Virus record (IMG/VR): IMGVR_UViG_3300042691_000179
Span: 1-21,490 of that record
Length of the DNA stretch: 21,490 nucleotides
Strand: one strand, 5' to 3'
DNA from: a virus
The notes under the pieces are model-generated. The model ran no database searches. It was not told where the DNA came from and saw nothing but the letters and a program-made list of their open reading frames with translations. The position numbers and the translations under genes are program-made. This document shows positions 637 through 21,370 of the stretch, piece by piece. Position 1 is the stretch's first letter; every line of letters starts with the position of its first letter.

Positions 637-1545
637 ATGGCTATTTCCCGCGCACAACTACTTAAAGAACTCCTCCCCGGCTTGAACGCTCTGTTTGGCA
701 TGGAATATGCCCGATATGGCGAAGAGCACAAGGAGATTTACGAAACCGAAACCTCCGAACGTTCGTTTGAAGAGGAAACCAAACTGTCTGGCTTCTCCGC
801 CGCTCCGGTGAAGAACGAAGGCAGTGCGATTGCCTACGATAACGCGCAAGAGGTCTTCACGGCTCGCTACACCCACGAAACTATTGCTCTTGGCTTCAGC
901 CTGACTGAAGAGGCGATTGAGGACAACCTCTACGACTCTCTGTCTAGCCGCTACACCAAGGCTCTGGCTCGTGCGATGGCGTACACCAAGCAGACTAAGG
1001 CTGCTGCCAACCTGAACAACGGCTTCAACTCTGCCTATCCGGGCGGTGATGGTCAGCCTCTGTTCTCGACGGCTCACCCGCTGGTCTCTGGTGGTGTCAA
1101 CAGCAACACGCCCGCTACTCCTGCCGACCTGAACGAGACTTCTTTGGAAGCCGCCGTTATTCAGATCGCTGCATGGACTGACGAACGTGGTCTGCTGATT
1201 GCCGCCAAGCCGCGCAAACTGATTGTTCCTCCGTCGCTGCAATTCGTTGCTACTCGTATTCTGGAAACTGAACTCCAGACCAATACGGCTGACAACAACA
1301 TCAACGCGCTGAAGAACAACGGTTCTATCGCAGAGGGTTACACCGTTAACCACTTCTTGACCGACAACGACGCTTGGTTCCTGACCACCGACGTGCCCAA
1401 CGGTATGAAACACTTCGTTCGTACCCCGCTGGCTAACTCGATGGACGGTGACTTCGATACTGGTAACGTTCGTTACAAGGCTCGTGAGCGTTATTCGTTC
1501 GGCTGGTCTGATCCGCTCGGTATGTTCGGCTCGCCCGGCGCTTAA
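637..1545 (+). CDS. Major capsid protein (Mu gpT-like)
   Basis: A 302-residue protein with the look of a Mu gpT-like major head subunit. It has a helical N-terminus (LLKELLPGLNALFGMEYARY), then the E-rich ETSERSFEEETKLSGF stretch and the loop-like segment ALGFSLTEEAIEDNLYD. The PLFSTAHPLVSG motif near residue 145 and the IVPPSLQFVATRIL segment near residue 200 are features I associate with this capsid family. The C-terminus WSDPLGMFGSPGA is also typical. The ATG at 637 follows AAGGAGTGACAA with good spacing. Length fits a HK97-fold shell protein of about 300 residues. It would assemble the icosahedral head. It is directly followed by a hairpin terminator, which would let it be expressed more strongly than the genes after it. 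No protease domain is fused to it. Confidence 0.9.
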   Translation: MAISRAQLLKELLPGLNALFGMEYARYGEEHKEIYETETSERSFEEETKLSGFSAAPVKNEGSAIAYDNAQEVFTARYTHETIALGFSLTEEAIEDNLYDSLSSRYTKALARAMAYTKQTKAAANLNNGFNSAYPGGDGQPLFSTAHPLVSGGVNSNTPATPADLNETSLEAAVIQIAAWTDERGLLIAAKPRKLIVPPSLQFVATRILETELQTNTADNNINALKNNGSIAEGYTVNHFLTDNDAWFLTTDVPNGMKHFVRTPLANSMDGDFDTGNVRYKARERYSFGWSDPLGMFGSPGA

Positions 1546-1588: not shown

Positions 1589-1628
1589 AGCCTTGAGATG
1601 GTTGAGACTACACAAAAAGGAGTTGTGT

Positions 1629-2219
1629 TTGCCATACAAAATTGACTCTTGCGGCATCTACAAGATCGTGAACAAGGCCACGGGGCAGTGTTATGTCGGT
1701 CAGTCGCAGCACGTCAAGAAGCGGTTGAAGGAACATTTCCGTCTGTTGCGGTGGAACAAGCACACCAACCCGCATCTCCAGCATGCTTTCAACAAATACG
1801 GTGCGGAGAACTTCTATGGCGCGGTTGAGATCGAATGCGAAACGCCTGAACAACTGGACTATTTAGAAGAACAATTCCTGCGTGGTGATGCGTGGTTCGA
1901 CGAACCCAACGTGTACAACATCGCAGACTTTGCTAAAGCCCCGATGCGAGGGAAGGTGCACAGTGAAGAGGCCCGCGAACGGATCAGACTAGGTCGAAGG
2001 GCATCGACGTTTGACTACCAGAGTGAGGACTATCGTGCGACATTGTCCAAAGCCCAAATGGCACGCTTTCACTCGGACCCGAAATTTCTTGCGAAGTTGA
2101 AGTTCATTCTGGACAATCCAGAATTATCCTATGCTGAATGTGCTAGGAGATTGGGTGCAGACACTAGCGCAGTTAGGCGTCTTGCATTAAAGTATCAACA
2201 CCTTAAAGGAGTTTTATAA
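1629..2219 (+). CDS. GIY-YIG homing endonuclease with C-terminal helix-turn-helix
   Basis: A free-standing homing endonuclease that should cut DNA at a target near its own location and spread by repair. I choose TTG 1629 as start because AAAAAGGAG ends six bases before it; TTG 1593 would place that ribosome site inside the gene. From TTG 1629 the protein has 196 residues. The nuclease domain shows GIYKIVN (9-15), YVG (22-24), an Arg at 32 in the VKKRLKEHF helix, and an acidic YLEEQF helix near 79-83 that should hold the metal-binding Glu. A NUMOD3-like segment, MRGKVHSEEARERI, lies near 106-119. A helix-turn-helix (LSYAECARRLGADTSAVRRL, about 166-185) ends the protein and likely reads the target. 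The stop TAA shares its last A with the ATG of the next gene, whose ribosome site AAAGGAG lies inside the endonuclease 3' end. Confidence 0.9.
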   Translation: MPYKIDSCGIYKIVNKATGQCYVGQSQHVKKRLKEHFRLLRWNKHTNPHLQHAFNKYGAENFYGAVEIECETPEQLDYLEEQFLRGDAWFDEPNVYNIADFAKAPMRGKVHSEEARERIRLGRRASTFDYQSEDYRATLSKAQMARFHSDPKFLAKLKFILDNPELSYAECARRLGADTSAVRRLALKYQHLKGVL

Positions 2220-3310: not shown

Positions 3311-3637
3311 ATGTCTGACGAGAACCGCATGCAATACCGCAAGCCTACGGACAAAGAAAAAGCAAAACTGAACAAGTCCCGCGAGATGATGCAGCGTGGC
3401 ATCGAAGGCGAGAAAGACTTCCTGTCCAAGATTTCCACCACGATGGCGAAATCGGCTCGTGACGAACAGCGCGAAGCCAAACGCCTACGTGAATCTGTGC
3501 CCGAGCCTGCACGTAACTACGAGGCGCTTGAGGGTATGAAGAAGGGTGGCAAGGTGAAGATGGCTGCTGGCGGTTCCGCTTCCAAGCGTGCTGACGGCTG
3601 TGCCGTTCGTGGCAAAACTCGTGGAAGGATGGTGTAA
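3311..3637 (+). CDS. Small basic protein with C-terminal GG/KTRG tag, copy 1
   Basis: A 108-residue, strongly basic protein with AAGGAGTTAGAC ahead of ATG 3311. Residues 1-73 are a charged helical region (TDKEKAKLNKSREMMQRG; EQREAKRLRESVPE) with no membrane segment. Residues 75-108 form a distinct tail with GMKKGGKVK, MAAGGSASKRADGCA and RGKTRG. Nearly the same tail ends the next gene, while the N-terminal parts of the two proteins are unrelated by eye. A looser version occurs in the third gene. The tail therefore behaves as a mobile module. Function is unknown; packaging tag, DNA-binding tail and processing site are all open. Confidence 0.8.
   Translation: MSDENRMQYRKPTDKEKAKLNKSREMMQRGIEGEKDFLSKISTTMAKSARDEQREAKRLRESVPEPARNYEALEGMKKGGKVKMAAGGSASKRADGCAVRGKTRGRMV
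3533..3634 (+). repeat. C-terminal GG/KTRG tag, copy 1 (34 codons)
   Basis: This stretch codes for the tail GMKKGGKVK-MAAGGSASKRADGCA-RGKTRG. Aligned to the copy at 3847-3951, 29 residues match, with one single-residue gap. Synonymous third-position differences are scattered through the DNA (for example AAGGTG against AAAGTG), so the copies are not a fresh duplication and appear kept by selection on the protein. Confidence 0.85.
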
Positions 3638-3639
3638 CT

Positions 3640-3954
3640 ATGGGCGATAAAGCACTTATGGGTGGGCTGCTTGGTGCGGCTCCTGCGCTGATGGGCAAGA
3701 TTGCTGGCAAAGAAAACGCTGGCTTTGGTCTCGGCATCCTTCCCGGCCTGATGTACAAAGATCAGTACCGCGACAAGCAGAAGGAAAAAGAGGCTGCTCA
3801 GGCTGCAATGAAGGCTGCTCCCGGTGCTGCTAAGGCTGTGCAACCCGGAATGAAGAAGGGTGGCAAAGTGAAGCAGATGGCCTCGGGCGGTTCGGCTTCC
3901 AAGCGTGCTGATGGCTGTGCGCAGCGAGGCAAGACTCGCGGGAAGATCATCTGA
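3640..3954 (+). CDS. Small basic protein with C-terminal GG/KTRG tag, copy 2
   Basis: A 104-residue protein. The N-terminal ~35 residues are hydrophobic and glycine-rich (MGGLLGAAPALMGKIAGK; FGLGILPGLM), possibly membrane-active or buried. An alanine/lysine helix follows (KQKEKEAAQAAMKAAPGAA), then the tag at residues 70-104 (GMKKGGKVKQMASGG, SASKRADGCA, RGKTRGKII). The glycine-rich start resembles in style the hydrophobic stretch of the large protein at 18681. The stop overlaps the next ATG (ATGA). The order of hydrophobic head, helix and basic tail would suit an internal virion or ejection protein, but that is inference. Confidence 0.8.
   Translation: MGDKALMGGLLGAAPALMGKIAGKENAGFGLGILPGLMYKDQYRDKQKEKEAAQAAMKAAPGAAKAVQPGMKKGGKVKQMASGGSASKRADGCAQRGKTRGKII
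3847..3951 (+). repeat. C-terminal GG/KTRG tag, copy 2 (35 codons)
   Basis: Second copy of the tail module, with one extra residue (Gln before MASGG) relative to copy 1. It ends exactly at the end of the coding region, as copy 1 does, so both are true C-terminal modules. A third, more divergent copy is coded at about 4176-4289, with MAAGG, KAADGIA and KKGKTRG, and there it is followed by 15 more residues that include another AKGG unit. Confidence 0.85.
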
Positions 3955-4337
3955 TGCCCGCCGTCAGCGCCAAACAGGAAAAGTTCATGCGGGCTGTGGC
4001 TGAAAACCCCAAGTTCGCAAAGAAGGTGGGTGTTCCACAATCCGTGGGTCGTGAGTTTTCTAAATCTGGAGGTGGTGAAATGAAAGAATCTAAGACGATG
4101 ATGAAGAAGGAAGTGGCTTTCATGAAAAAGAAAGGCGCTCCTAAGTCGATGGTCAAACACGAGATGAAAGAAGCCGGAATGAAGTACGGCGGCATGGCTA
4201 AGAAGCCCGCCAAGAAAATGGCTGCTGGTGGCCTGTCTGCTGGTCACAAGGCTGCTGATGGCATCGCCAAGAAGGGTAAGACCCGTGGCATGGAAGTGAA
4301 GATGGCTAAGGGCGGCATGTCTCGTAAGGGCTGCTAA
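3954..4337 (+). CDS. Small basic protein with DUF3008-like start and divergent GG/KTRG tag
   Basis: A 127-residue, very Lys-rich protein whose ATG overlaps the previous stop by four bases. The first ~37 residues (SAKQEKFMRAVAENPKFAKK, then VGVPQSVGREFSKS) recall the short DUF3008 motif, where a KxQxxFM start is followed by a helix and then VAxEFxxS. Residues 42-73 are a lysine/methionine-rich helix (KESKTMMKKEVAFMKKKG). The tail has YGGMAKK, KKMAAGG, KAADGIAKKGKTRG and a final MAKGGMSRKGC. It thus carries the same tail grammar as the two preceding proteins with a third unrelated N-terminal part. Function unknown; nucleic-acid contact is plausible from charge. Confidence 0.8.
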   Translation: MPAVSAKQEKFMRAVAENPKFAKKVGVPQSVGREFSKSGGGEMKESKTMMKKEVAFMKKKGAPKSMVKHEMKEAGMKYGGMAKKPAKKMAAGGLSAGHKAADGIAKKGKTRGMEVKMAKGGMSRKGC

Positions 4338-4339
4338 CC

Positions 4340-4624
4340 ATGATGCCGAGCCGGGGCATGGGGGCTATTCAGCCCTCTAAGATGCCAAAAGCCAAGAAGA
4401 TCACCCGCAAGGATGATCCGAACGAGGTGACCATGTACGCCGATGGCGGACAGGTGAAGTCTCGCGTCAACGAGGCTGGCAACTACACCAAACCCGGTAT
4501 GCGCAAGCGGCTCTTTGAGCAGATCAAATCTGGCGGCAAAGGGGGTGCTCCGGGGCAGTGGAGTGCGAGAAAAGCACAGATGCTGGCCTCGCAGTACAAA
4601 AAGGCTGGTGGGGGGTACAAGTGA
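4340..4624 (+). CDS. Small basic phage protein (DUF5872-like)
   Basis: A 94-residue basic protein. Two adjacent ATGs (4340, 4343) are possible starts; no strong ribosome site precedes either, so coupling to the previous gene (stop at 4337) is likely. The second half, GNYTKPGMRKRLFEQIKSGG followed by KGGAPGQWSARKAQMLASQY, is a motif I recognise from many small phage and giant-virus proteins and tentatively equate with DUF5872. A YADGGQVKSR segment in the middle echoes the GG units of the preceding tagged proteins. The conserved block is basic with a W and may bind nucleic acid; its real role is unknown. Confidence 0.8.
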   Translation: MMPSRGMGAIQPSKMPKAKKITRKDDPNEVTMYADGGQVKSRVNEAGNYTKPGMRKRLFEQIKSGGKGGAPGQWSARKAQMLASQYKKAGGGYK

Positions 4625-4887
4625 GTGGACTCGCCAAAAGTCAAAAAAGTCTCAAAGCGTGGACCAAGCAAGAGTGGCAAACCAAAAGCGGTAAGCCCTC
4701 GACGCAAGGCCCAAACGCTACAGGAGAACGTTACCTCCCCAAACGAGCAATCAAGTCCCTCAGCCCCGCCGAATACGCCGCTACAACCCGAGCCAAGCGT
4801 GCAGGAAAAGCCCAAGGCAAACAATTTGTGGCTCAACCTAAAAGCGTGGCTAAAAAGGTTGCTCCGCATAGGAAAATAGGCAAATGA
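4621..4887 (+). CDS. Small basic conserved phage protein (GTG start)
   Basis: An 88-residue basic protein read from GTG 4621, which overlaps the previous TGA as GTGA; a GGTGGGGGG ribosome-like run ends about six bases upstream. An in-frame ATG at 4558 would push it 67 bases into the previous gene and add residues that do not look conserved. Recognisable blocks are WTKQEWQTKSGKPSTQG, ATGERYLPKRAI, LSPAEYAATTRAKRAGK and FVAQPKSVAKK, typical of a small protein widespread in environmental phages. Its function is not known to me. A competing reading frame at 4625-4879 is discarded. It closes the run of basic small proteins, and its stop overlaps the connector gene's ATG. Confidence 0.8.
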   Translation: MSGLAKSQKSLKAWTKQEWQTKSGKPSTQGPNATGERYLPKRAIKSLSPAEYAATTRAKRAGKAQGKQFVAQPKSVAKKVAPHRKIGK

Positions 4888-5627
4888 CAACGTCCGGTAC
4901 CAACTCATTCAATCTTGACCTCAACACGCTTGTGGAAGAGGCGTTCGAGCGTTGCGGGTTGGAACTGCGTTCGGGCTACGACATGCGCACGGCGCGTCGT
5001 TCGTTGAACCTGCTGACGATTGAGTGGGCAAACCGAGGCATCAATCTGTGGACGATTGAGCAGGGCCAGATTGCCATGACGCAGGGGACGATTACGTACC
5101 CTCTGCCCGTGGATACCATCGACCTGCTAGACCACGTTATCCGTACGCAAACAGGCGTAAATCAGACGGACATCAACATCAGCCGTATCAGCGTGGATAC
5201 CTACGCCACGATCCCGAACAAGAATGCTCAGGGTCGTCCAATTCAGGTTTGGATCAACCGTCAGTCCGGTGCACAGTACCCGATCAACGGCAACCAGCCC
5301 AACACGACGAACACTACGACGGGCATCAACCCACCCAACATCAACGTCTGGCCTTGCCCTGACCAGAACAACTACTACACCTTCGTGTATTGGCGGCTGC
5401 GCCGCCTCCAAGACGCTGGTAACGGCGTGAACACGCAGGACATCCCTTTCCGTATGCTGCCTTGCCTCGTGGCTGGGCTGGCGTACTACCTTGCAATGAA
5501 ACTTCCTGATGCTCTACCTCGGCTTGAAATGCTCAAGGCTGCGTATGAGGAACAGTGGGCGTTGGCGGCAAGCGAAGACCGAGAGAAAGCGTCTTTGCGC
5601 ATTGCACCACGACAAATGTTTTATTGA
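4884..5627 (+). CDS. Head-tail connector/adaptor-like protein 1
   Basis: A 247-residue protein. The helical N-terminus, LNTLVEEAFERCGLELRSGY and then RTARRSLNLLTIEWANRGIN, is the helix pair typical of podovirus adaptor proteins of the P22 gp4 or SU10 adaptor kind. A beta-rich middle with aromatic-rich segments follows (INVWPCPDQNNYYTFVYW), then C-terminal helices (LPCLVAGLAYYLAMKLPDAL; EMLKAAYEEQWALAASEDRE). Such proteins dock below the portal and form a ring of the tail. ATG 4884 overlaps the previous TGA. The gene encoding the second adaptor-like protein at 6389 shares this helix-beta-helix plan, so the two may form successive rings. Family membership is judged from pattern, not a search. 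Confidence 0.75.
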   Translation: MTTSGTNSFNLDLNTLVEEAFERCGLELRSGYDMRTARRSLNLLTIEWANRGINLWTIEQGQIAMTQGTITYPLPVDTIDLLDHVIRTQTGVNQTDINISRISVDTYATIPNKNAQGRPIQVWINRQSGAQYPINGNQPNTTNTTTGINPPNINVWPCPDQNNYYTFVYWRLRRLQDAGNGVNTQDIPFRMLPCLVAGLAYYLAMKLPDALPRLEMLKAAYEEQWALAASEDREKASLRIAPRQMFY

Positions 5628-6067: not shown

Positions 6068-6247
6068 ATGAAAGATGATATGAAGAAAGTGGCAAAGGCC
6101 GAAGTGAAAGCGCACGAGAAGCGCATGCACGGCAAAGGCTATGCCAAAGGTGGCAAAACTAACATGCAGATGAAGACGCTGGGACGTGGCTTGGCTAAAG
6201 TCGCCAACCAGAAAAAGACTTCGTTCACCTACAAGCGCGGAGGCTGA
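6068..6247 (+). CDS. Tiny basic phage protein (59 aa)
   Basis: A 59-residue basic protein running from ATG 6068 to TGA 6245-6247. TAGGAGTGGATC gives a good ribosome site. The sequence starts MKDDMKKVAKAEVKAHEKRM and includes MHGKGYAKGGKTNMQMKT, then LGRGLAKVANQKK and a final KRGG. The AKGGKTNM unit again fits the GG-Lys grammar of the tagged proteins at 3311-4337. I recognise similar HGxxYAKGGKTNM proteins from other environmental phages next to structural genes; no function is known to me. The next gene's ATG follows one base after its stop, with the GGAGG ribosome site inside its last codons. Confidence 0.8.
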   Translation: MKDDMKKVAKAEVKAHEKRMHGKGYAKGGKTNMQMKTLGRGLAKVANQKKTSFTYKRGG

Positions 6248-6248
6248 T

Positions 6249-6392
6249 ATGCAAAGCAAACCTGTCAAGCAGATTCCGATTGTTCCGAACAACAACGGTT
6301 ACCCCAACAATGTGCCCAACACGCAGACTGTGAAGACTCGTGGCACTGGCGCTGCGATTAAGGGTACCAACTCCAGCAAGAAACTTGCATGA
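6249..6392 (+). CDS. Tiny basic phage protein (47 aa) with TRGTGAA tail
   Basis: A 47-residue protein from ATG 6249, preceded by CGCGGAGGCTGAT; a longer in-frame reading from 6186 is rejected because it overlaps the gene before it. The N-terminal half is Pro/Asn-rich and probably disordered (IPIVPNNNGYPNNVPNTQ). The C-terminal half is a compact basic motif, VKTRGTGAAIKG followed by TNSSKKLA, which recurs in small proteins of other phages as TRGxGAA-KG-SKK. It is a possible relative of the KTRG tails upstream. Its stop overlaps the next ATG. Function unknown. Confidence 0.78.
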   Translation: MQSKPVKQIPIVPNNNGYPNNVPNTQTVKTRGTGAAIKGTNSSKKLA

Positions 6393-7096
6393 ACTACGCT
6401 GAACTGACCGCCGCCATCAAGGCGTACTGCGAAAACGACTTCCCCCAAGCGGTGGGGGCAGGTGGGCTTACGTCCGCCGAGCAGATTGCTCGTTTTGTGC
6501 AGCAGGCGGAACAGCGTATTTTCAACACGGTTCAGTTCCCTTCGATCCGCAAAAACGTCACGGGTAACACCACACTGGGCAACAAGTATCTGTCTGCTCC
6601 GGGTGACTTTCTGGCGGTGTATTCGATGGCGGTGATTGACCCTGTCACCTCTGAGTACTTGTACCTACTCAACAAGGACGTGAACTTCATTCGTGAGGCG
6701 TATCCGTCTCCGAACGATCAGGGCAAACCCTACTATTACGCATTGTTCGGGCCGACCACTACGAACAACGTGCCGCCTGTCATCACGAACGAACTGACGT
6801 TCCTGCTTGGCCCGACTCCTGATGCTGCATACAGCGTTGAGTTGCACTACTACTATTACCCCGAGTCGATCACGACTGCTTCTTCTGGGCAGACGTGGCT
6901 CGGTGACAACTTTGATTCTGTCTTGCTTTATGGCGCAATGCTCGAAGCCGCGACGTTCATGAAGTCCGACAAGGACGTGATGGACAACTACATGGCGCGT
7001 TATAACGAAGCGTTGGGCTTGGCGAAACGACTTGGTGATGGCATGGAGCGTCAAGACGCTTACAGGTCTGGTCAAGTACGAGTTCCTGTGAGGTAA
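6389..7096 (+). CDS. Head-tail connector/adaptor-like protein 2
   Basis: A 235-residue protein. It starts with a helical YAELTAAIKAYCENDF segment and a second helix IARFVQQAEQRIFNTVQFPS. A beta-rich core follows (YLSAPGDFLAVYSMAV; SVELHYYYYPESI). C-terminal helices end it (LLYGAMLEAATFMKSDKDVM; MARYNEALGLAKRLGDGMER). This matches the adaptor/tail-tube-A-like protein often annotated in short-tailed phages (SU10-type adaptor, distantly T7 gp11-like) that sits between portal and nozzle. Its ATG overlaps the previous TGA (ATGA). With the related protein at 4884 it gives this phage two such candidates. Assignment rests on pattern and context. Confidence 0.78.
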   Translation: MNYAELTAAIKAYCENDFPQAVGAGGLTSAEQIARFVQQAEQRIFNTVQFPSIRKNVTGNTTLGNKYLSAPGDFLAVYSMAVIDPVTSEYLYLLNKDVNFIREAYPSPNDQGKPYYYALFGPTTTNNVPPVITNELTFLLGPTPDAAYSVELHYYYYPESITTASSGQTWLGDNFDSVLLYGAMLEAATFMKSDKDVMDNYMARYNEALGLAKRLGDGMERQDAYRSGQVRVPVR

Positions 7097-7525: not shown

Positions 7526-8110
7526 ATGATTAACAACAAAGCAAAGTCCACCGACAAGGTCTTCTCTGAAGTCTTGGGTGGTGGCGCATCGGAAGAGCGC
7601 GTTCGCGGTGGCGGCGTGTTTTTCTTTGAGTGCCGTGACAAAGACGGCAACCTCAAGTGGAAAGAAGAGTCTAAGAACCTTGTTGTGAACGTCGGTCTCA
7701 AAGACATGAACGACAAGTATTTCACTGGCACAACCTACACGGCAACGTGGTATCTGGGTTTGATTACCGGTCCGGGTTCTGGCACGACGATTGATGCTGG
7801 CGACACGATGGCGACCCATGCAGGTTGGACTGAAGCAACGGCTTACAGCCAATCGACTCGTCCTGCTTGTACGTTTGGTGCGGCTACCACTGCTGATCCT
7901 TCTGTCATCAGCAACTCGGCTTCTGTGGCTGTGTTCAGCATCAACGGCACCGTGACGATTGCTGGTGCATTCCTGACCAGCAACAACACCAAGGGTGGCA
8001 CTACCGGCATTCTGTTCTCGGCTTCTGACTTCCAATCGCCCGGTGACCGTGCGGTGGTGTCGGGCGACACGCTGAACGTGACCTATCAATTCAGCCTCGA
8101 CGCTGCGTAA
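7526..8110 (+). CDS. Structural protein (194 aa)
   Basis: A 194-residue protein. Residues ~28-57 hold a charged block (GVFFFECRDKDGNLKWKEES and then KNLVVNVGLKDMNDKYF) that I recognise from phage proteins found between connector and fibre genes. Following it is a low-charge beta domain with WYLGLITGPGSGTTIDAGD, an ATHAGWTEATAYSQSTRP block and a C-terminal SGDTLNVTYQFSLDAA. ATG 7526 follows AAGGAGCATGAA; a nearer ATG at 7521 stops after two codons. Probably a minor virion protein connecting tail and appendages; the exact role is not visible. Confidence 0.75.
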   Translation: MINNKAKSTDKVFSEVLGGGASEERVRGGGVFFFECRDKDGNLKWKEESKNLVVNVGLKDMNDKYFTGTTYTATWYLGLITGPGSGTTIDAGDTMATHAGWTEATAYSQSTRPACTFGAATTADPSVISNSASVAVFSINGTVTIAGAFLTSNNTKGGTTGILFSASDFQSPGDRAVVSGDTLNVTYQFSLDAA

Positions 8111-8119
8111 GGAGAAAAC

Positions 8120-8299
8120 ATGGCTACCAAATTTACCAAAGGTCAAAACGTCAAACTCGTTTCTGTTGCTCCGCAAGGCCCGGTTGTTGCCCTGCGCATG
8201 GACGAGAATGGCACGTTCTTCTACCTCGTGGAGTGGACTGACGAGGCTGGCGTGAAGCATCAACGCTGGTTTGAAGAGGCGCAACTCGCCGCTGCGTAA
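8120..8299 (+). CDS. Mini-protein with SH3-like YodC/DUF2158-type pattern (59 aa)
   Basis: A 59-residue protein from ATG 8120 to TAA 8297-8299, preceded by TAAGGAGAAAAC. It reads as one small beta barrel: FTKGQNVKLVSVAPQGPVVA, then FFYLVEWTDEAG, then HQRWFEEAQL. The order (basic start, V-x-L strand, GPV turn, W-aromatic strand, acidic turn, FxEAxL end) resembles small SH3-like proteins of the YodC/DUF2158 type. It could bind protein or nucleic acid. It lies between a structural protein and the repeat protein, so a virion or assembly role is likely. The family link is tentative. Confidence 0.72.
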   Translation: MATKFTKGQNVKLVSVAPQGPVVALRMDENGTFFYLVEWTDEAGVKHQRWFEEAQLAAA

Positions 8300-12323: not shown

Positions 12324-12359
12324 ATGCCCAGCATAATCAACAGTGTGAGGATTGAATGA
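12324..12359 (+). pseudogene. Detached first codons of a fibre gene (11-residue leader)
   Basis: An ATG at 12324 with a perfect AAGGAG six bases upstream opens a frame of only 11 residues that begins MPSIIN and stops at 12357-12359. The fibre gene beyond the endonuclease begins MPSILN at 12957. The 18 bases 12324-12341 and 12957-12974 match at 15 positions. The stop of the short frame overlaps the endonuclease ATG 12356 (ATGA), so its translation would couple to the endonuclease. The simplest reading is that it is the original start of the fibre gene, cut off by the insertion. A deliberate leader peptide cannot be excluded. Confidence 0.65.
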
Positions 12360-12964
12360 CAGCCAGACTGCCAACGGAAGTTTGTCATCTGTACCGCATT
12401 ACTGATACGGTACGGGGCAAGTTTTACATTGGCAAACATCGTGGCTCAGAAAAATCTTCATATTGGGGAAGCGGAAGACGAATTCGATCTCATGTAAAAA
12501 AGTACGGCTCTCAAGACCTTATTTACGAAATACTGGTGATTGGAACCGAGGAGTACATTTATGAAATCGAGAAAAAATATGTCACGGATGAATTTATTGC
12601 ATCCAATTCAAACTGTTTAAACCTTTGTGCTGGCGGTATTGGCGGCAACATGGGTCACGGTGCTTGGAACAAAGGGAAAAAATGGGATGACGCCGCCAAA
12701 GAAAAAATGAGGCTGGCAAAACTTGGAAAGGTTAGTCCACGCAAAGGGGCGGTTAATAGCCCAGAGCATCGTTTAAAAATTAGTCTTGCTCGTGTGGGTA
12801 AAGTTTGCATTACCGAAGAAGCGAGAAAAAAGTTAAGCGCGATTAACAAAGGAAAAGTTTGGGAAAGGGTGGATTGCCCTCATTGCGGCAAGTCTGTTCC
12901 TTGGCATATGCGTAACCAAAAGCATTTCGATAAATGCGAAAGAAAGGATTTTAACTATGCCTAG
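12356..12964 (+). CDS. GIY-YIG homing endonuclease with NUMOD3 motifs and Cys/His C-terminus
   Basis: A 202-residue protein. The N-terminal domain has CHLYRIT (10-16) and FYIGKH (23-28) in place of a standard GIY/YIG pair. YWGSGRRI follows near 36-43, and a Glu-rich helix YIYEIEKKYV (67-76) should hold the metal ligand. Several NUMOD3-like GKxxxxxxxxK units lie near 107-167 (NKGKKWDDAAKEKMRLAKLG; SPEHRLKISLARVGK; TEEARKKLSAINKGK). The C-terminus has CPHC (174-177) with later His and Cys (HMRNQKHFDKC), a zinc-finger-like end common in phage endonucleases. The gene is plainly more A/T-rich than its neighbours. The last codons overlap the fibre start ATG 12957, and GAAAGGATTTTAACT provides that start's ribosome site. 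It differs in subtype from the endonuclease at 1629. Confidence 0.9.
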   Translation: MTARLPTEVCHLYRITDTVRGKFYIGKHRGSEKSSYWGSGRRIRSHVKKYGSQDLIYEILVIGTEEYIYEIEKKYVTDEFIASNSNCLNLCAGGIGGNMGHGAWNKGKKWDDAAKEKMRLAKLGKVSPRKGAVNSPEHRLKISLARVGKVCITEEARKKLSAINKGKVWERVDCPHCGKSVPWHMRNQKHFDKCERKDFNYA

Positions 12965-18680: not shown

Positions 18681-20468
18681 ATGCAATATCCCACAATTGC
18701 CCAACCACAATTCGCATTCGCCCCCACTTTTGCTGGAGGCGGGCTGGCTAACGCCGCGCAGGCAGTTCAGTCTCGGGGTCGCGGCAACGACACCATGCTG
18801 GTTCACATGACCCCCGGCGAGGTAAAGGGGTTGCAGGCACTGGCGTTGGCGCATGGCGGTTCCCTAACAATCAACCCTGCTACGGGTTTACCCGAAGCCG
18901 GATTCCTCGACGCTATCCTGCCTATCGTGGCGGGTTTTGCACTTGGCCCTGCTGGTTTTGCTCTGATGTCTGCCCCGATGGCGGCGCTGACTGTGGGTGG
19001 CGTAACGGCTTTGAGCACGGGCGACCTCGGCAAAGGCCTGATGGCGGGTCTGGGCGCATTCGGCGGTGCTAACCTTGGTGCCGCTCTGTCGTCTACGGGT
19101 ACTGAAGCAGCCAAAACAGCAATGTTGCCTAGTGGCGGTATGTCTGTCGCAGAAAGCATCCCCGCCAGTATGGGCGGTACGGGTGCTACGACAGGTTCTA
19201 CGCTTGCGGACATCACTGGAAAAGCGGCTTCTGCGTCTGGTCCGATGTCGATGGCTCCGTGGGCACAACCCAGCGTAGCCTCTCAACTGGGCGTTTCTTC
19301 CGCTCCGGTGGCAATGACGCCGTCTCAAGTGGCGGCTTTGCAATCGACGGCTCCGACTGGGTTCAGTAGTGTTGGCTCAGGCATTGCTGACTTGGCTTCC
19401 CCCGGTGGTTTTTCCCGTTTTGGTAACGCATTCATGAATGCTTCCGGCGGCGGTATGGGTACGGCTATGGGTGCGTACGGTATGGCGGCTCCTGTTTTGG
19501 ACGCAGTTCAGCCTTCCTACGAGTTTCCTAACGTTGCCGAAGCCACCAGTTCTAACTATGCAGGGCCATACGTACCGACCCCCCGTGAGGTACGGTTCAA
19601 GCCTGAAGATGACACCAGCACTTCGGAGTTCACCTACTTCACCCCGTCTAACCCTGTTCCGGGGTATCAGCCAATGAATGCTGCGGCTGGTGGTTACATG
19701 CAACGCTACCAAGAAGGTGGTGAGGTCATGCCGCGAGTGAGCGACATGGTGCGTCCTGCTCCTGAAGTCATTCAGACGCTGCCCGCTGTACCTGAGTCAG
19801 CCAATCAGGGGATGACTGCCTCGTTGTTCAATAAAAACTTTCTTGGTGCCGAGCCTGCCAATTTGACCGAGCATAGTGGTATGGAGAGCATGGTGCGCTA
19901 CCAAGAGGGTGGCAACGTTGAAGATCGCGCCCTGCGTATGCCTGCTGACCTCAGCCGTGTCGGGACTGCACCTGAGTTCAATCACAATTTCCGCCCCATC
20001 GAGGTGATGGCTCCTGCCCAAAGTGCTGCCCCTGAACCTGCTGGTTTCGGTGGCCTCATCTCGCGTGCGATGCGAGACATCTTTGACCGTGAGGGGAAGT
20101 CCAATTACACCGACTTGTCCAAGTTCAAGTACGACCCCAACACCCAACGCATGGTGCCGATGGCACAAGGTGGACTGGCTGCGCTCAATGCCTACAACAA
20201 AGGCGGCACCCCTGTGGGTGGTCGTTTCCTGCAAGGAGCAGGCGACGGCACTAGCGACTCTATCCCCGCCACGATAGGCGGAAGTCAACCAGCACGTCTG
20301 GCTGATGGCGAGTTTGTGGTGGATGCTCGCACTGTGTCCGAGATTGGTAACGGCTCTTCTAAGGCTGGTGCCAAGAAGTTGTACGCCATGATGGAGCGTG
20401 TGCACAGCGCACGCAAGAAAGCCAAGCGTGGTCAGGACACTAAAGCAGACAGGTACTTGCCAGCATGA
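18681..20468 (+). CDS. Glycine-rich probable internal/ejection protein
   Basis: From ATG 18681 the product has 595 residues; an upstream in-frame TTG 18675 lies nearer to GAGGA (18666-18670), so the start is uncertain by two codons. The first part has RGRGNDTMLVHMTPGEVKGL and ALAHGGSLTINPATGLPEAG, blocks I have seen in similar phage proteins. A hydrophobic glycine/alanine segment follows (FLDAILPIVAGFALGPAGFA, about 74-93), possibly membrane-inserting. The middle is low complexity with YQEGGEV, YQEGGNV and MAQGGLA units. The end, GGRFLQGAGDGTSDSIPATI followed by ARLADGEFVVDARTVSEIGN, is a widely seen phage C-terminus. Size, hydrophobic segment and place after the tail genes suggest an ejected virion protein; this is inference. 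Confidence 0.75.
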   Translation: MQYPTIAQPQFAFAPTFAGGGLANAAQAVQSRGRGNDTMLVHMTPGEVKGLQALALAHGGSLTINPATGLPEAGFLDAILPIVAGFALGPAGFALMSAPMAALTVGGVTALSTGDLGKGLMAGLGAFGGANLGAALSSTGTEAAKTAMLPSGGMSVAESIPASMGGTGATTGSTLADITGKAASASGPMSMAPWAQPSVASQLGVSSAPVAMTPSQVAALQSTAPTGFSSVGSGIADLASPGGFSRFGNAFMNASGGGMGTAMGAYGMAAPVLDAVQPSYEFPNVAEATSSNYAGPYVPTPREVRFKPEDDTSTSEFTYFTPSNPVPGYQPMNAAAGGYMQRYQEGGEVMPRVSDMVRPAPEVIQTLPAVPESANQGMTASLFNKNFLGAEPANLTEHSGMESMVRYQEGGNVEDRALRMPADLSRVGTAPEFNHNFRPIEVMAPAQSAAPEPAGFGGLISRAMRDIFDREGKSNYTDLSKFKYDPNTQRMVPMAQGGLAALNAYNKGGTPVGGRFLQGAGDGTSDSIPATIGGSQPARLADGEFVVDARTVSEIGNGSSKAGAKKLYAMMERVHSARKKAKRGQDTKADRYLPA

Positions 20469-21370
20469 TGGAACTACAGATAAGCACTCTATGGATTGAG
20501 CGGCTTTTGAAGAAGCCCTTCCATAAGCATTGTCTGTTGGGGGACAAGAAGTTCTTCGATCCCTATTCCTTCCCGGTAGCAAAAGAGTTGGAAGACAATT
20601 TTCCAGCCATTCAAGCCGAACTTAAAGACATCCTTAAGCGTTACGACGACTTCGCTCCGTTTCAAAGCATCTCGCCTGACCAGACTTACATCTCCAACGA
20701 CGACAAGTGGCGAATGTTTTTCTTTAAGGCGGCTGGGGTGAACTTCGGACGCAACCAACAATTTGCACCAAAGACCTTCGAGATTCTGAACAAACACAAG
20801 TATGTAATTTCAGCCTACATATCTGTGCTTGGTCCCCATAAAATGCTCATGCCGCATGAAGGTCCGTGGTCTGGCATTCTGCGTATGCACTTGGGGGTGG
20901 TTATCCCCGGCAACAAAGAGTGCACGTTGGTCAACGGTGGCGAGAAGTACCACTGGGAGGAAGGCAAGGTAGTCCTGTTTGACGATACGTACGAGCACAT
21001 TGCTGTGAACGAAACCGATCAGATTCGGGCTATCCTATTCTTGGATGTGATGCGTCCCTTGCCGCAACCGTGGAAGTTCATCAACTGGGCGATCCTGCGC
21101 CTGTCGGTTCTGTTTCCGTATATTTGGATTCCGTACTTCCGGCACAAGCGATGGGAGAAGCGGTTCTACGGAGAAAAAGAATGCAATGCACAATGGTCCC
21201 TAGCGAGCACGTTAAAGAAATTTGGAGCCAAGTTGAAGGCTACCTCGAAGGGGCTGCTGAGTACACTCATGGTCGGTATGACGTGGATGACATCTACGAC
21301 TCGATCATGGGCTACGACCATACGCTCTGGATTGCTTTCACGGACGAAGGCATCAAAGGGGCAGTCGTGA
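20465..21370 (+). CDS. Aspartyl/asparaginyl beta-hydroxylase-like dioxygenase with doubtful 3' end
   Basis: From ATG 20465 the frame codes 301 residues; 1-238 form the believable protein. Its core resembles aspartyl/asparaginyl beta-hydroxylases (Fe(II)/2-oxoglutarate enzymes). Visible parts are MPHEGPWSGILRMHLGV (129-145) with iron ligand His131 and Gly133 where other families have Asp, ECTLVNGGEKYHWEEGKVV (152-170), and FDDTYEHIAVN (172-182) with the second ligand His178. Arg188, ten residues later, matches the spacing of the 2-oxoglutarate-binding Arg in human AspH. A hydrophobic WKFINWAILRLSVLFPYIW segment follows. After GEKE (~residue 239) the frame reads across the next gene in another phase and looks like noise. 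The ATG overlaps the previous stop. Substrate unknown. Confidence 0.82.
   Translation: MMELQISTLWIERLLKKPFHKHCLLGDKKFFDPYSFPVAKELEDNFPAIQAELKDILKRYDDFAPFQSISPDQTYISNDDKWRMFFFKAAGVNFGRNQQFAPKTFEILNKHKYVISAYISVLGPHKMLMPHEGPWSGILRMHLGVVIPGNKECTLVNGGEKYHWEEGKVVLFDDTYEHIAVNETDQIRAILFLDVMRPLPQPWKFINWAILRLSVLFPYIWIPYFRHKRWEKRFYGEKECNAQWSLASTLKKFGAKLKATSKGLLSTLMVGMTWMTSTTRSWATTIRSGLLSRTKASKGQS

What the first reader, a model, noticed from the sequence alone, without database searches (positions are those of the whole stretch)
3311..4337. Three different small basic proteins share one C-terminal tag
Three consecutive genes have unrelated N-terminal parts but end in the same kind of tail: MKKGGKVK, MAxGG-SASKRADGCA and RGKTRG. 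The first two tails match at 29 positions over 34-35 residues, and the third is a looser version. Fainter echoes (YADGGQVKSR at 4340, AKGGKTNM at 6068, TRGTGAA at 6249, YQEGG and MAQGG in the protein at 18681) occur through the same structural region. A tail kept while the front part changes points to a shared targeting, binding or processing function. Options are a capsid-packaging tag for cargo proteins, a DNA-condensing tail, or a cleavage site after GG. I recall similar tails in environmental phage predictions, but no described function.
Basis: partly seen in the sequence, partly recalled or inferred. Interest (0 to 1): 0.85.

Follow-up and report, generated by a model that had tools for sequence, protein, structure and literature searches.

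The report
Shared C-terminal tag on phage proteins
A common group of aquatic, mostly uncultured phages puts the same roughly 30-residue tail on the ends of many otherwise unrelated small proteins made beside the capsid gene, most likely as an address label that docks interchangeable passenger proteins onto the assembling virus particle.

Summary
Genes A (3311-3637), B (3640-3954) and C (3954-4337) have unrelated bodies but share a tail (A/B 29 of 34 positions). In 234 related IMG/VR loci a tail profile finds 680 ORFs; their bodies fall into 178 sequence clusters, and the tail sits at or within about 10 residues of the C-terminus in most. In whole ~60 kb contigs the 2-6 tagged genes form one 1-4 kb cassette, between the major capsid gene and the head-tail adaptor. 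Bodies turn over fast even between phages with near-identical capsids, while the tail (ADG[CIV]Ax[RK]GKT[KR]G[KR][MI][VI]) is kept by protein-level selection, with nearly randomised codons. One single-copy gene, DUF6321, occurs with the tag in 39 loci and without it in 225, on bodies up to 99% identical, so the tag is a separable module. Best explanation, inferred: a docking peptide that loads interchangeable small proteins into or onto the virion head, working like the T4 capsid targeting sequence or an encapsulin cargo peptide but unrelated to both. Virion incorporation and the binding partner were not shown. The 'echoes' elsewhere in the window are mostly generic GG motifs.

The parts
3311..3637 (+). 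Protein A (108 aa): helical N-part of the YRKPT..GIEGEKDFLSKISTT family, then the tag
   Evidence: cluster 1; helices 14-77, tail pLDDT 46-52
3536..3634 (+). Tag of A: MKKGGKVKMAAGGSASKRADGCAVRGKTRGRMV
   Evidence: tail profile; shuffle test
3640..3954 (+). Protein B (104 aa): glycine-rich hydrophobic N-part then the tag
   Evidence: cluster 2
3850..3951 (+). Tag of B: MKKGGKVKQMASGGSASKRADGCAQRGKTRGKII
3954..4337 (+). Protein C (127 aa): N-terminal ~36-residue helical SAKQEKFM module (like small phiKZ-type jumbo-phage proteins), helical middle, tag with Cys-ended extension
   Evidence: (cluster 0)
4179..4334 (+). Tag of C (MKYGG..KMAAGGLSAGHKAADGIAKKGKTRGMEV) plus extension KMAKGGMSRKGC
637..1545 (+). 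Major capsid protein (Mu gpT / Phage_capsid_4 type), 80-97% identical across tagged loci; upstream border of the cassette
4884..5627 (+). Head-tail adaptor (SU10_adaptor type); downstream border of the cassette
6068..6247 (+). Small protein whose homologues in at least 17 loci carry the tag core at their N-terminus; the window copy lacks the core

Best explanation
The tail is a portable docking peptide, an address tag that brings interchangeable small proteins to one shared phage partner during head assembly, so that they are loaded into (or onto) the virion and probably delivered to the next host cell. SHOWN from sequence: one tail on many unrelated bodies, coded in a small cassette between capsid and adaptor genes; body turnover with tag constancy; selection on the peptide rather than the DNA; gain or loss of the tag on one near-constant body. 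INFERRED: that the partner is a head component (capsid inner surface, scaffold or portal), that tagged proteins enter the virion, and that some act in the host (for instance as counter-defence or take-over factors). It works like the T4 capsid targeting sequence or an encapsulin cargo-loading peptide, at the C-terminus and with an unrelated sequence.
For: Tag on 680 ORFs; bodies in 178 strict clusters, 52 with two or more members. Tag ends within 0-2 residues of the stop in about 450 and within 8-10 in 134. Tag confined to one 1-4 kb cassette in 19 of 20 large contigs, apart from a few weak or N-terminal-core matches; fixed place between capsid and adaptor genes. A search with the tail alone returned 72 new loci, all with this capsid (50 loci, 80-91% identity) or its adaptor neighbourhood. 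Tag more conserved than body in 28 of 30 clusters, 0.80 against 0.59. Within-genome tags on different bodies: codon identity at identical residues 0.448, 0.366 expected from codon usage; no pair reaches 95% DNA identity, so they are old and kept as peptides. At capsid identity of 97% or more the Jaccard index of tagged families is only 0.56, falling to 0.12. DUF6321: 39 loci tagged, 225 untagged, none both, same gene interval, bodies up to 99% identical, no tail behind the stop. Tail predicted disordered in A and C. T4 parallel: small basic injected proteins with variable bodies and a short shared terminal signal (PMC9026906, PMC12373910).
Against: No virion proteomics was available; nothing shows the proteins are in particles. 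In a sister clade the A protein switches tail type (tail identity 0.41, body 0.84) while the capsid protein stays 88-89% identical, which argues against capsid protein alone as partner. Some homologues carry the core at the N-terminus. The tag is strongly basic (median +8), so DNA binding is not excluded. No body matched a known effector; of 66 scanned only DUF6321 and DUF6496 were convincing Pfam matches.
Confidence: 0.5

Rival explanations
1. The tail is a non-specific nucleic-acid-binding tail: tagged proteins coat or condense packaged DNA, the positive charge being what matters.
For: Median tail charge +8; Lys/Arg/Gly rich; predicted disordered.
Against: Near-invariant Asp (94%), two Gly (100%) and Thr (99%), and a C/I/V position, are not expected of a charge-only tail. 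Many bodies are themselves basic, so a charge tail would be redundant (body median about +4).
Confidence: 0.17
2. Tagged proteins are assembly factors that dock on scaffold, portal or capsid during head building and are not carried into the next cell.
For: Genes lie in the structural operon, between capsid and adaptor genes. Acidic portal (median net -13) and putative scaffold (-13) lie in the same operon.
Against: Assembly factors should not be so interchangeable: phages with 97% identical capsids differ in nearly half of their tagged families.
Confidence: 0.17
3. The tail is a sequence module spread by recombination, or a DNA/RNA element, with no function as peptide.
For: Same tail on many bodies; tag gained or lost at a natural C-terminus.
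Against: Codons nearly randomised while residues are kept; no near-identical DNA copies in 298 within-genome pairs.
Confidence: 0.04
4. The tag binds a host factor, acts as a localisation or stability signal in the infected cell, or displays proteins on the outside of the capsid.
For: Not excluded by any result; a clade-specific tail could track host as well as virion.
Against: The tag stays with one capsid clade and with the head operon; a host-factor tag should also occur on early genes, but matches stay in the head cassette.
Confidence: 0.12

Closest known systems
T4 internal proteins and capsid targeting sequence (CTS)
   Same: Several small basic proteins per phage, bodies variable between relatives, a short shared terminal sequence (PMC9026906, PMC12373910).
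   Different: CTS is N-terminal, about 10 residues, cut off by the prohead protease gp21; here the tag is mostly C-terminal, about 20-34 residues, unrelated in sequence, and no processing is known.
Encapsulin cargo-loading peptides
   Same: C-terminal peptide behind a flexible linker shared by unrelated cargos and bound inside an HK97-type shell (PMC8229669).
   Different: About 10 residues, unrelated sequence; shell is cellular; binding pocket known, here unknown.
P22-type ejection proteins
   Same: Injected with the DNA (PMC8402733, abstract listed); coded in the structural operon (general knowledge).
   Different: A fixed set of proteins without a shared tag.
Tails of A-family orthologues in the DSL-LC04 clade and of Planktothrix phage Pag-Yong1 UMO75986.1
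   Same: Same layout, [YFM]xxGGxV followed by a Gly/basic end at the C-terminus.
   Different: Different core (SKGQGKVIRSKKTRIC, VRGQGAARKTKGCKIT, GRDGCAKRGRTKGRFI); only one or two genes per genome found with it.

Membership tests
T4 CTS / internal proteins | Short shared terminal signal on proteins with unrelated bodies | tested here: met
   178 body clusters, one tail
T4 CTS / internal proteins | Signal at the N-terminus | tested here: not met
   Tail at or near the C-terminus in most of 680 ORFs; an N-terminal core only in the 6068 family
T4 CTS / internal proteins | Removed by a gp21-type prohead protease | not testable with these tools
   No processing data; the tail consensus has no Glu for a T4-type xxE site (T4 site from general knowledge)
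T4 CTS / internal proteins | Proteins inside the virion and injected | not testable with these tools
   No virion proteomics for this clade found
Encapsulin cargo-loading peptide | C-terminal peptide shared by unrelated cargos | tested here: met
Encapsulin cargo-loading peptide | Encapsulin shell gene beside the cargo | tested here: not met
   Neighbour is a phage major capsid gene of Mu gpT / Phage_capsid_4 type
Encapsulin cargo-loading peptide | Peptide binds the inner shell surface | not testable with these tools
   No complex prediction available; capsid has no sequence match in PDB
Known Pfam / PHROG domain containing the tail | Tail covered by a library profile | tested here: not met
   (DUF6321-type matches end at residue 84-85, before the tag)
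Walker A P-loop (GxxxxGKT) | Motif within a folded NTPase, Lys invariant | tested here: not met
   The core G-[CIV]-A-x-[RK]-G-K-T fits the pattern, but the tail is predicted disordered and Lys is replaced by Arg in Pag-Yong1

The most novel reading that the evidence does not exclude
A phage group common in aquatic metagenomes uses a dedicated C-terminal virion-import tag, of a sequence class not described before, to run an open, fast-changing set of 2-6 passenger proteins per phage, probably delivered into the host; a protein gains or loses passage by gaining or losing the tag.
Probability: 0.35. Interest if true: 0.87.

Novelty: new variant of a known kind. Interest (0 to 1): 0.72.

Why it matters
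The tag gives a sequence handle on well over a hundred families of phage 'dark matter' proteins that the libraries hardly recognise. If it marks virion passengers, scanning for it would list candidate injected proteins in uncultured phages, as the T4 signal did for internal proteins. It also offers a compact C-terminal tag to test for loading proteins into phage heads, and a natural comparison (tagged and untagged DUF6321) to test what the tag does.

Tried and rejected
Full-length homology of A, B and C: no similarity of N-parts above shuffles. Recent tandem duplication or gene conversion of the tail: no within-genome DNA identity of 95% or more; modest codon excess only. Stop-codon readthrough making tagged DUF6321: no tail behind the stop in any of 221 untagged copies. 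Walker A motif: coincidence, see membership test. GG echoes as copies of the tag: near shuffle expectation in non-tagged genes. tblastn of the tail alone in cultured phage records: no match, possibly because of the low-complexity filter; a profile did find a diverged tail in Pag-Yong1. Search with B in prokaryote genomes: one MAG contig only. Attempt to name the partner by co-divergence: capsid is the only virion gene as conserved as the tag within the clade (0.86), but in the sister clade the tail switches while capsid stays at 0.88-0.89, so not resolved. Structure searches gave only low-confidence or uncharacterised matches. No paper describing this tail was found.

Full report
OBSERVATION. 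Three consecutive ORFs at 3311-3637 (A), 3640-3954 (B) and 3954-4337 (C) are present as stated. Tails of A and B agree at 29 of 34 positions; the C tail is looser and carries a Cys-ended extension. Shuffle tests put the tail similarity far above chance for A-B and at or beyond the edge of 2000 shuffles for A-C and B-C, and show no similarity between the N-parts. The window is a 21,490-base virus record of IMG/VR.

GENERALITY. Searches of viral contigs with A, B and C gave 234 sequences including the window. An iterated tail profile of 34 positions (consensus MKKGGKVKKMAKGGSASKRADGIAQKGKTKGKMV) found 680 ORFs. After removal of the tail, 500 distinct bodies fell into 178 clusters (E < 1e-3, at least 50% mutual coverage); A, B and C are in three different clusters. 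The set is biased by the queries, which share the tail, and cluster numbers depend on thresholds, but a search with the tail alone gave the same picture. The core is A-D-G-[CIV]-A-x-[RK]-G-K-T-[KR]-G-[KR]-[MI]-[VI], with two Gly and the Thr near 100% and Asp 94%.

PLACE. In 19 of 20 contigs of 55-67 kb the tails cluster in one stretch of about 1-4 kb (2-6 genes), with a few weak or N-terminal-core matches nearby or elsewhere. Gene order is constant: p12, capsid, small genes, tagged genes, p4340, p4558, adaptor, p5636, p6068, p6389. Of 72 loci reached by the tail alone, 50 hold the capsid gene at 80-91% identity and the others hold the adaptor neighbourhood without a capsid match. The tail thus belongs to one capsid clade. 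The nearest cultured phages by capsid are Planktothrix phage Pag-Yong1 (73%), pelagiphages HTVC023P/027P, Roseobacter CRP-901/902 and others; among those checked only Pag-Yong1 has a recognisable, diverged tail, on UMO75986.1, the third gene after the capsid gene.

CONSTRAINT. The tail is more conserved than the body in 28 of 30 clusters (mean 0.80 against 0.59). Tags on different bodies in one genome share codons at identical residues in 45% of cases, against 37% expected from codon usage, and none of 298 pairs reaches 95% DNA identity. So the peptide is what is kept, and the copies are not recent. The charge of the tail is about +8; bodies vary (median about +4, 19% of clusters neutral or acidic). 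Models of A and C show helical bodies and a disordered tail, at modest confidence.

TURNOVER. Between phages with capsids at least 97% identical the Jaccard index of tagged families is 0.56 (9 pairs, 22% share none); at 85-89% it is 0.14. The cassette is hypervariable while the tag is constant.

NATURAL TAGGING EXPERIMENT. DUF6321 (PF19846; cluster 3) normally ends in RAW[NK]C or similar, as in HTVC115P gp68 and Pag-Yong1, and more than 500 phage records hold the domain. In the present loci it is single-copy in the capsid-adaptor interval: 39 loci carry the tag directly behind RAWNC, 225 do not, none has both. Bodies with and without the tag are up to 99% identical, and the state changes at least 11-14 times on adaptor, capsid or DUF6321 trees; recombination and weak tree resolution can inflate that number. 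No tail lies behind the stop in untagged copies.

TAIL SWITCH IN A SISTER CLADE. A-family orthologues in the DSL-LC04 clade lie between portal and a GroES-like gene and carry other tails. Two subclades differ in the tail (identity 0.41) with bodies at 0.84 and capsid at 0.88-0.89, while portal, putative scaffold and terminase differ strongly (0.50-0.64). This shows that the tail can change as a block, and speaks against capsid protein as sole partner; it does not identify the partner. The names scaffold and GroES for these genes are positional or taken from annotation.

MECHANISM. Shown: modularity, locus, turnover, peptide-level selection, separability. Inferred: docking to a head component and loading into or onto virions; delivery to the host. 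The T4 internal proteins are the best model of such a system (PMC9026906, PMC12373910), encapsulin cargo peptides of the C-terminal layout (PMC8229669). Membership in either is not claimed: position and sequence differ. Rivals are a charge-driven DNA-binding tail, an assembly-factor dock, and a host-factor or display tag.

LIMITS. No proteomics, no complex prediction, host unknown, ORFs called from the first start codon, redundant metagenome contigs. One literature library without most subscription journals was searched, so 'not described' means not found there.

Noticed in passing
window 6068-6247; e.g. L203:3517-3705: Homologues of this small protein in at least 17 loci carry the tag core (ADGIAKKGKTEG) at their N-terminus, so the motif is not strictly C-terminal; the window copy lacks it.
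   Followed up: partly
L127, L135, L138 (tagged) against L357, L149 (untagged): DUF6321 protein exists with and without the tag on bodies up to 99% identical, single-copy in each locus.
   Followed up: yes
L264-L298: A-family orthologues with two other tail types (..RSKKTRIC and ..KTKGCKIT), switching between subclades while body and capsid stay similar.
   Followed up: partly
window 3954-4065: First ~36 residues of C resemble small proteins of phiKZ-like jumbo phages (65-78% identity) and the start of PHROG 'virion structural' families.
   Followed up: partly
tagged ORFs in L-loci: 32 of 178 tagged families also begin with a basic [KR]x[FYM]xxGG motif within the first 22 residues; meaning unknown.
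   Followed up: no
window 1593-2219 and 12356-12964: GIY-YIG nuclease domain just after the capsid gene, and a NUMOD3-bearing ORF: likely homing endonucleases.
   Followed up: no
window 20465-21370: Aspartyl/asparaginyl beta-hydroxylase domain (PF05118, E 1e-40), a likely auxiliary metabolic or modification gene.
   Followed up: no
window 4884-5627 and 6389-7096: Both proteins match the SU10_adaptor profile, so two adaptor-like proteins flank the small genes in between.
   Followed up: no
L386 near 8001-8153: A MAG contig labelled Patulibacter has a truncated membrane-protein-like frame running into a perfect tag; probably a chimeric assembly or a virus fragment.
   Followed up: no
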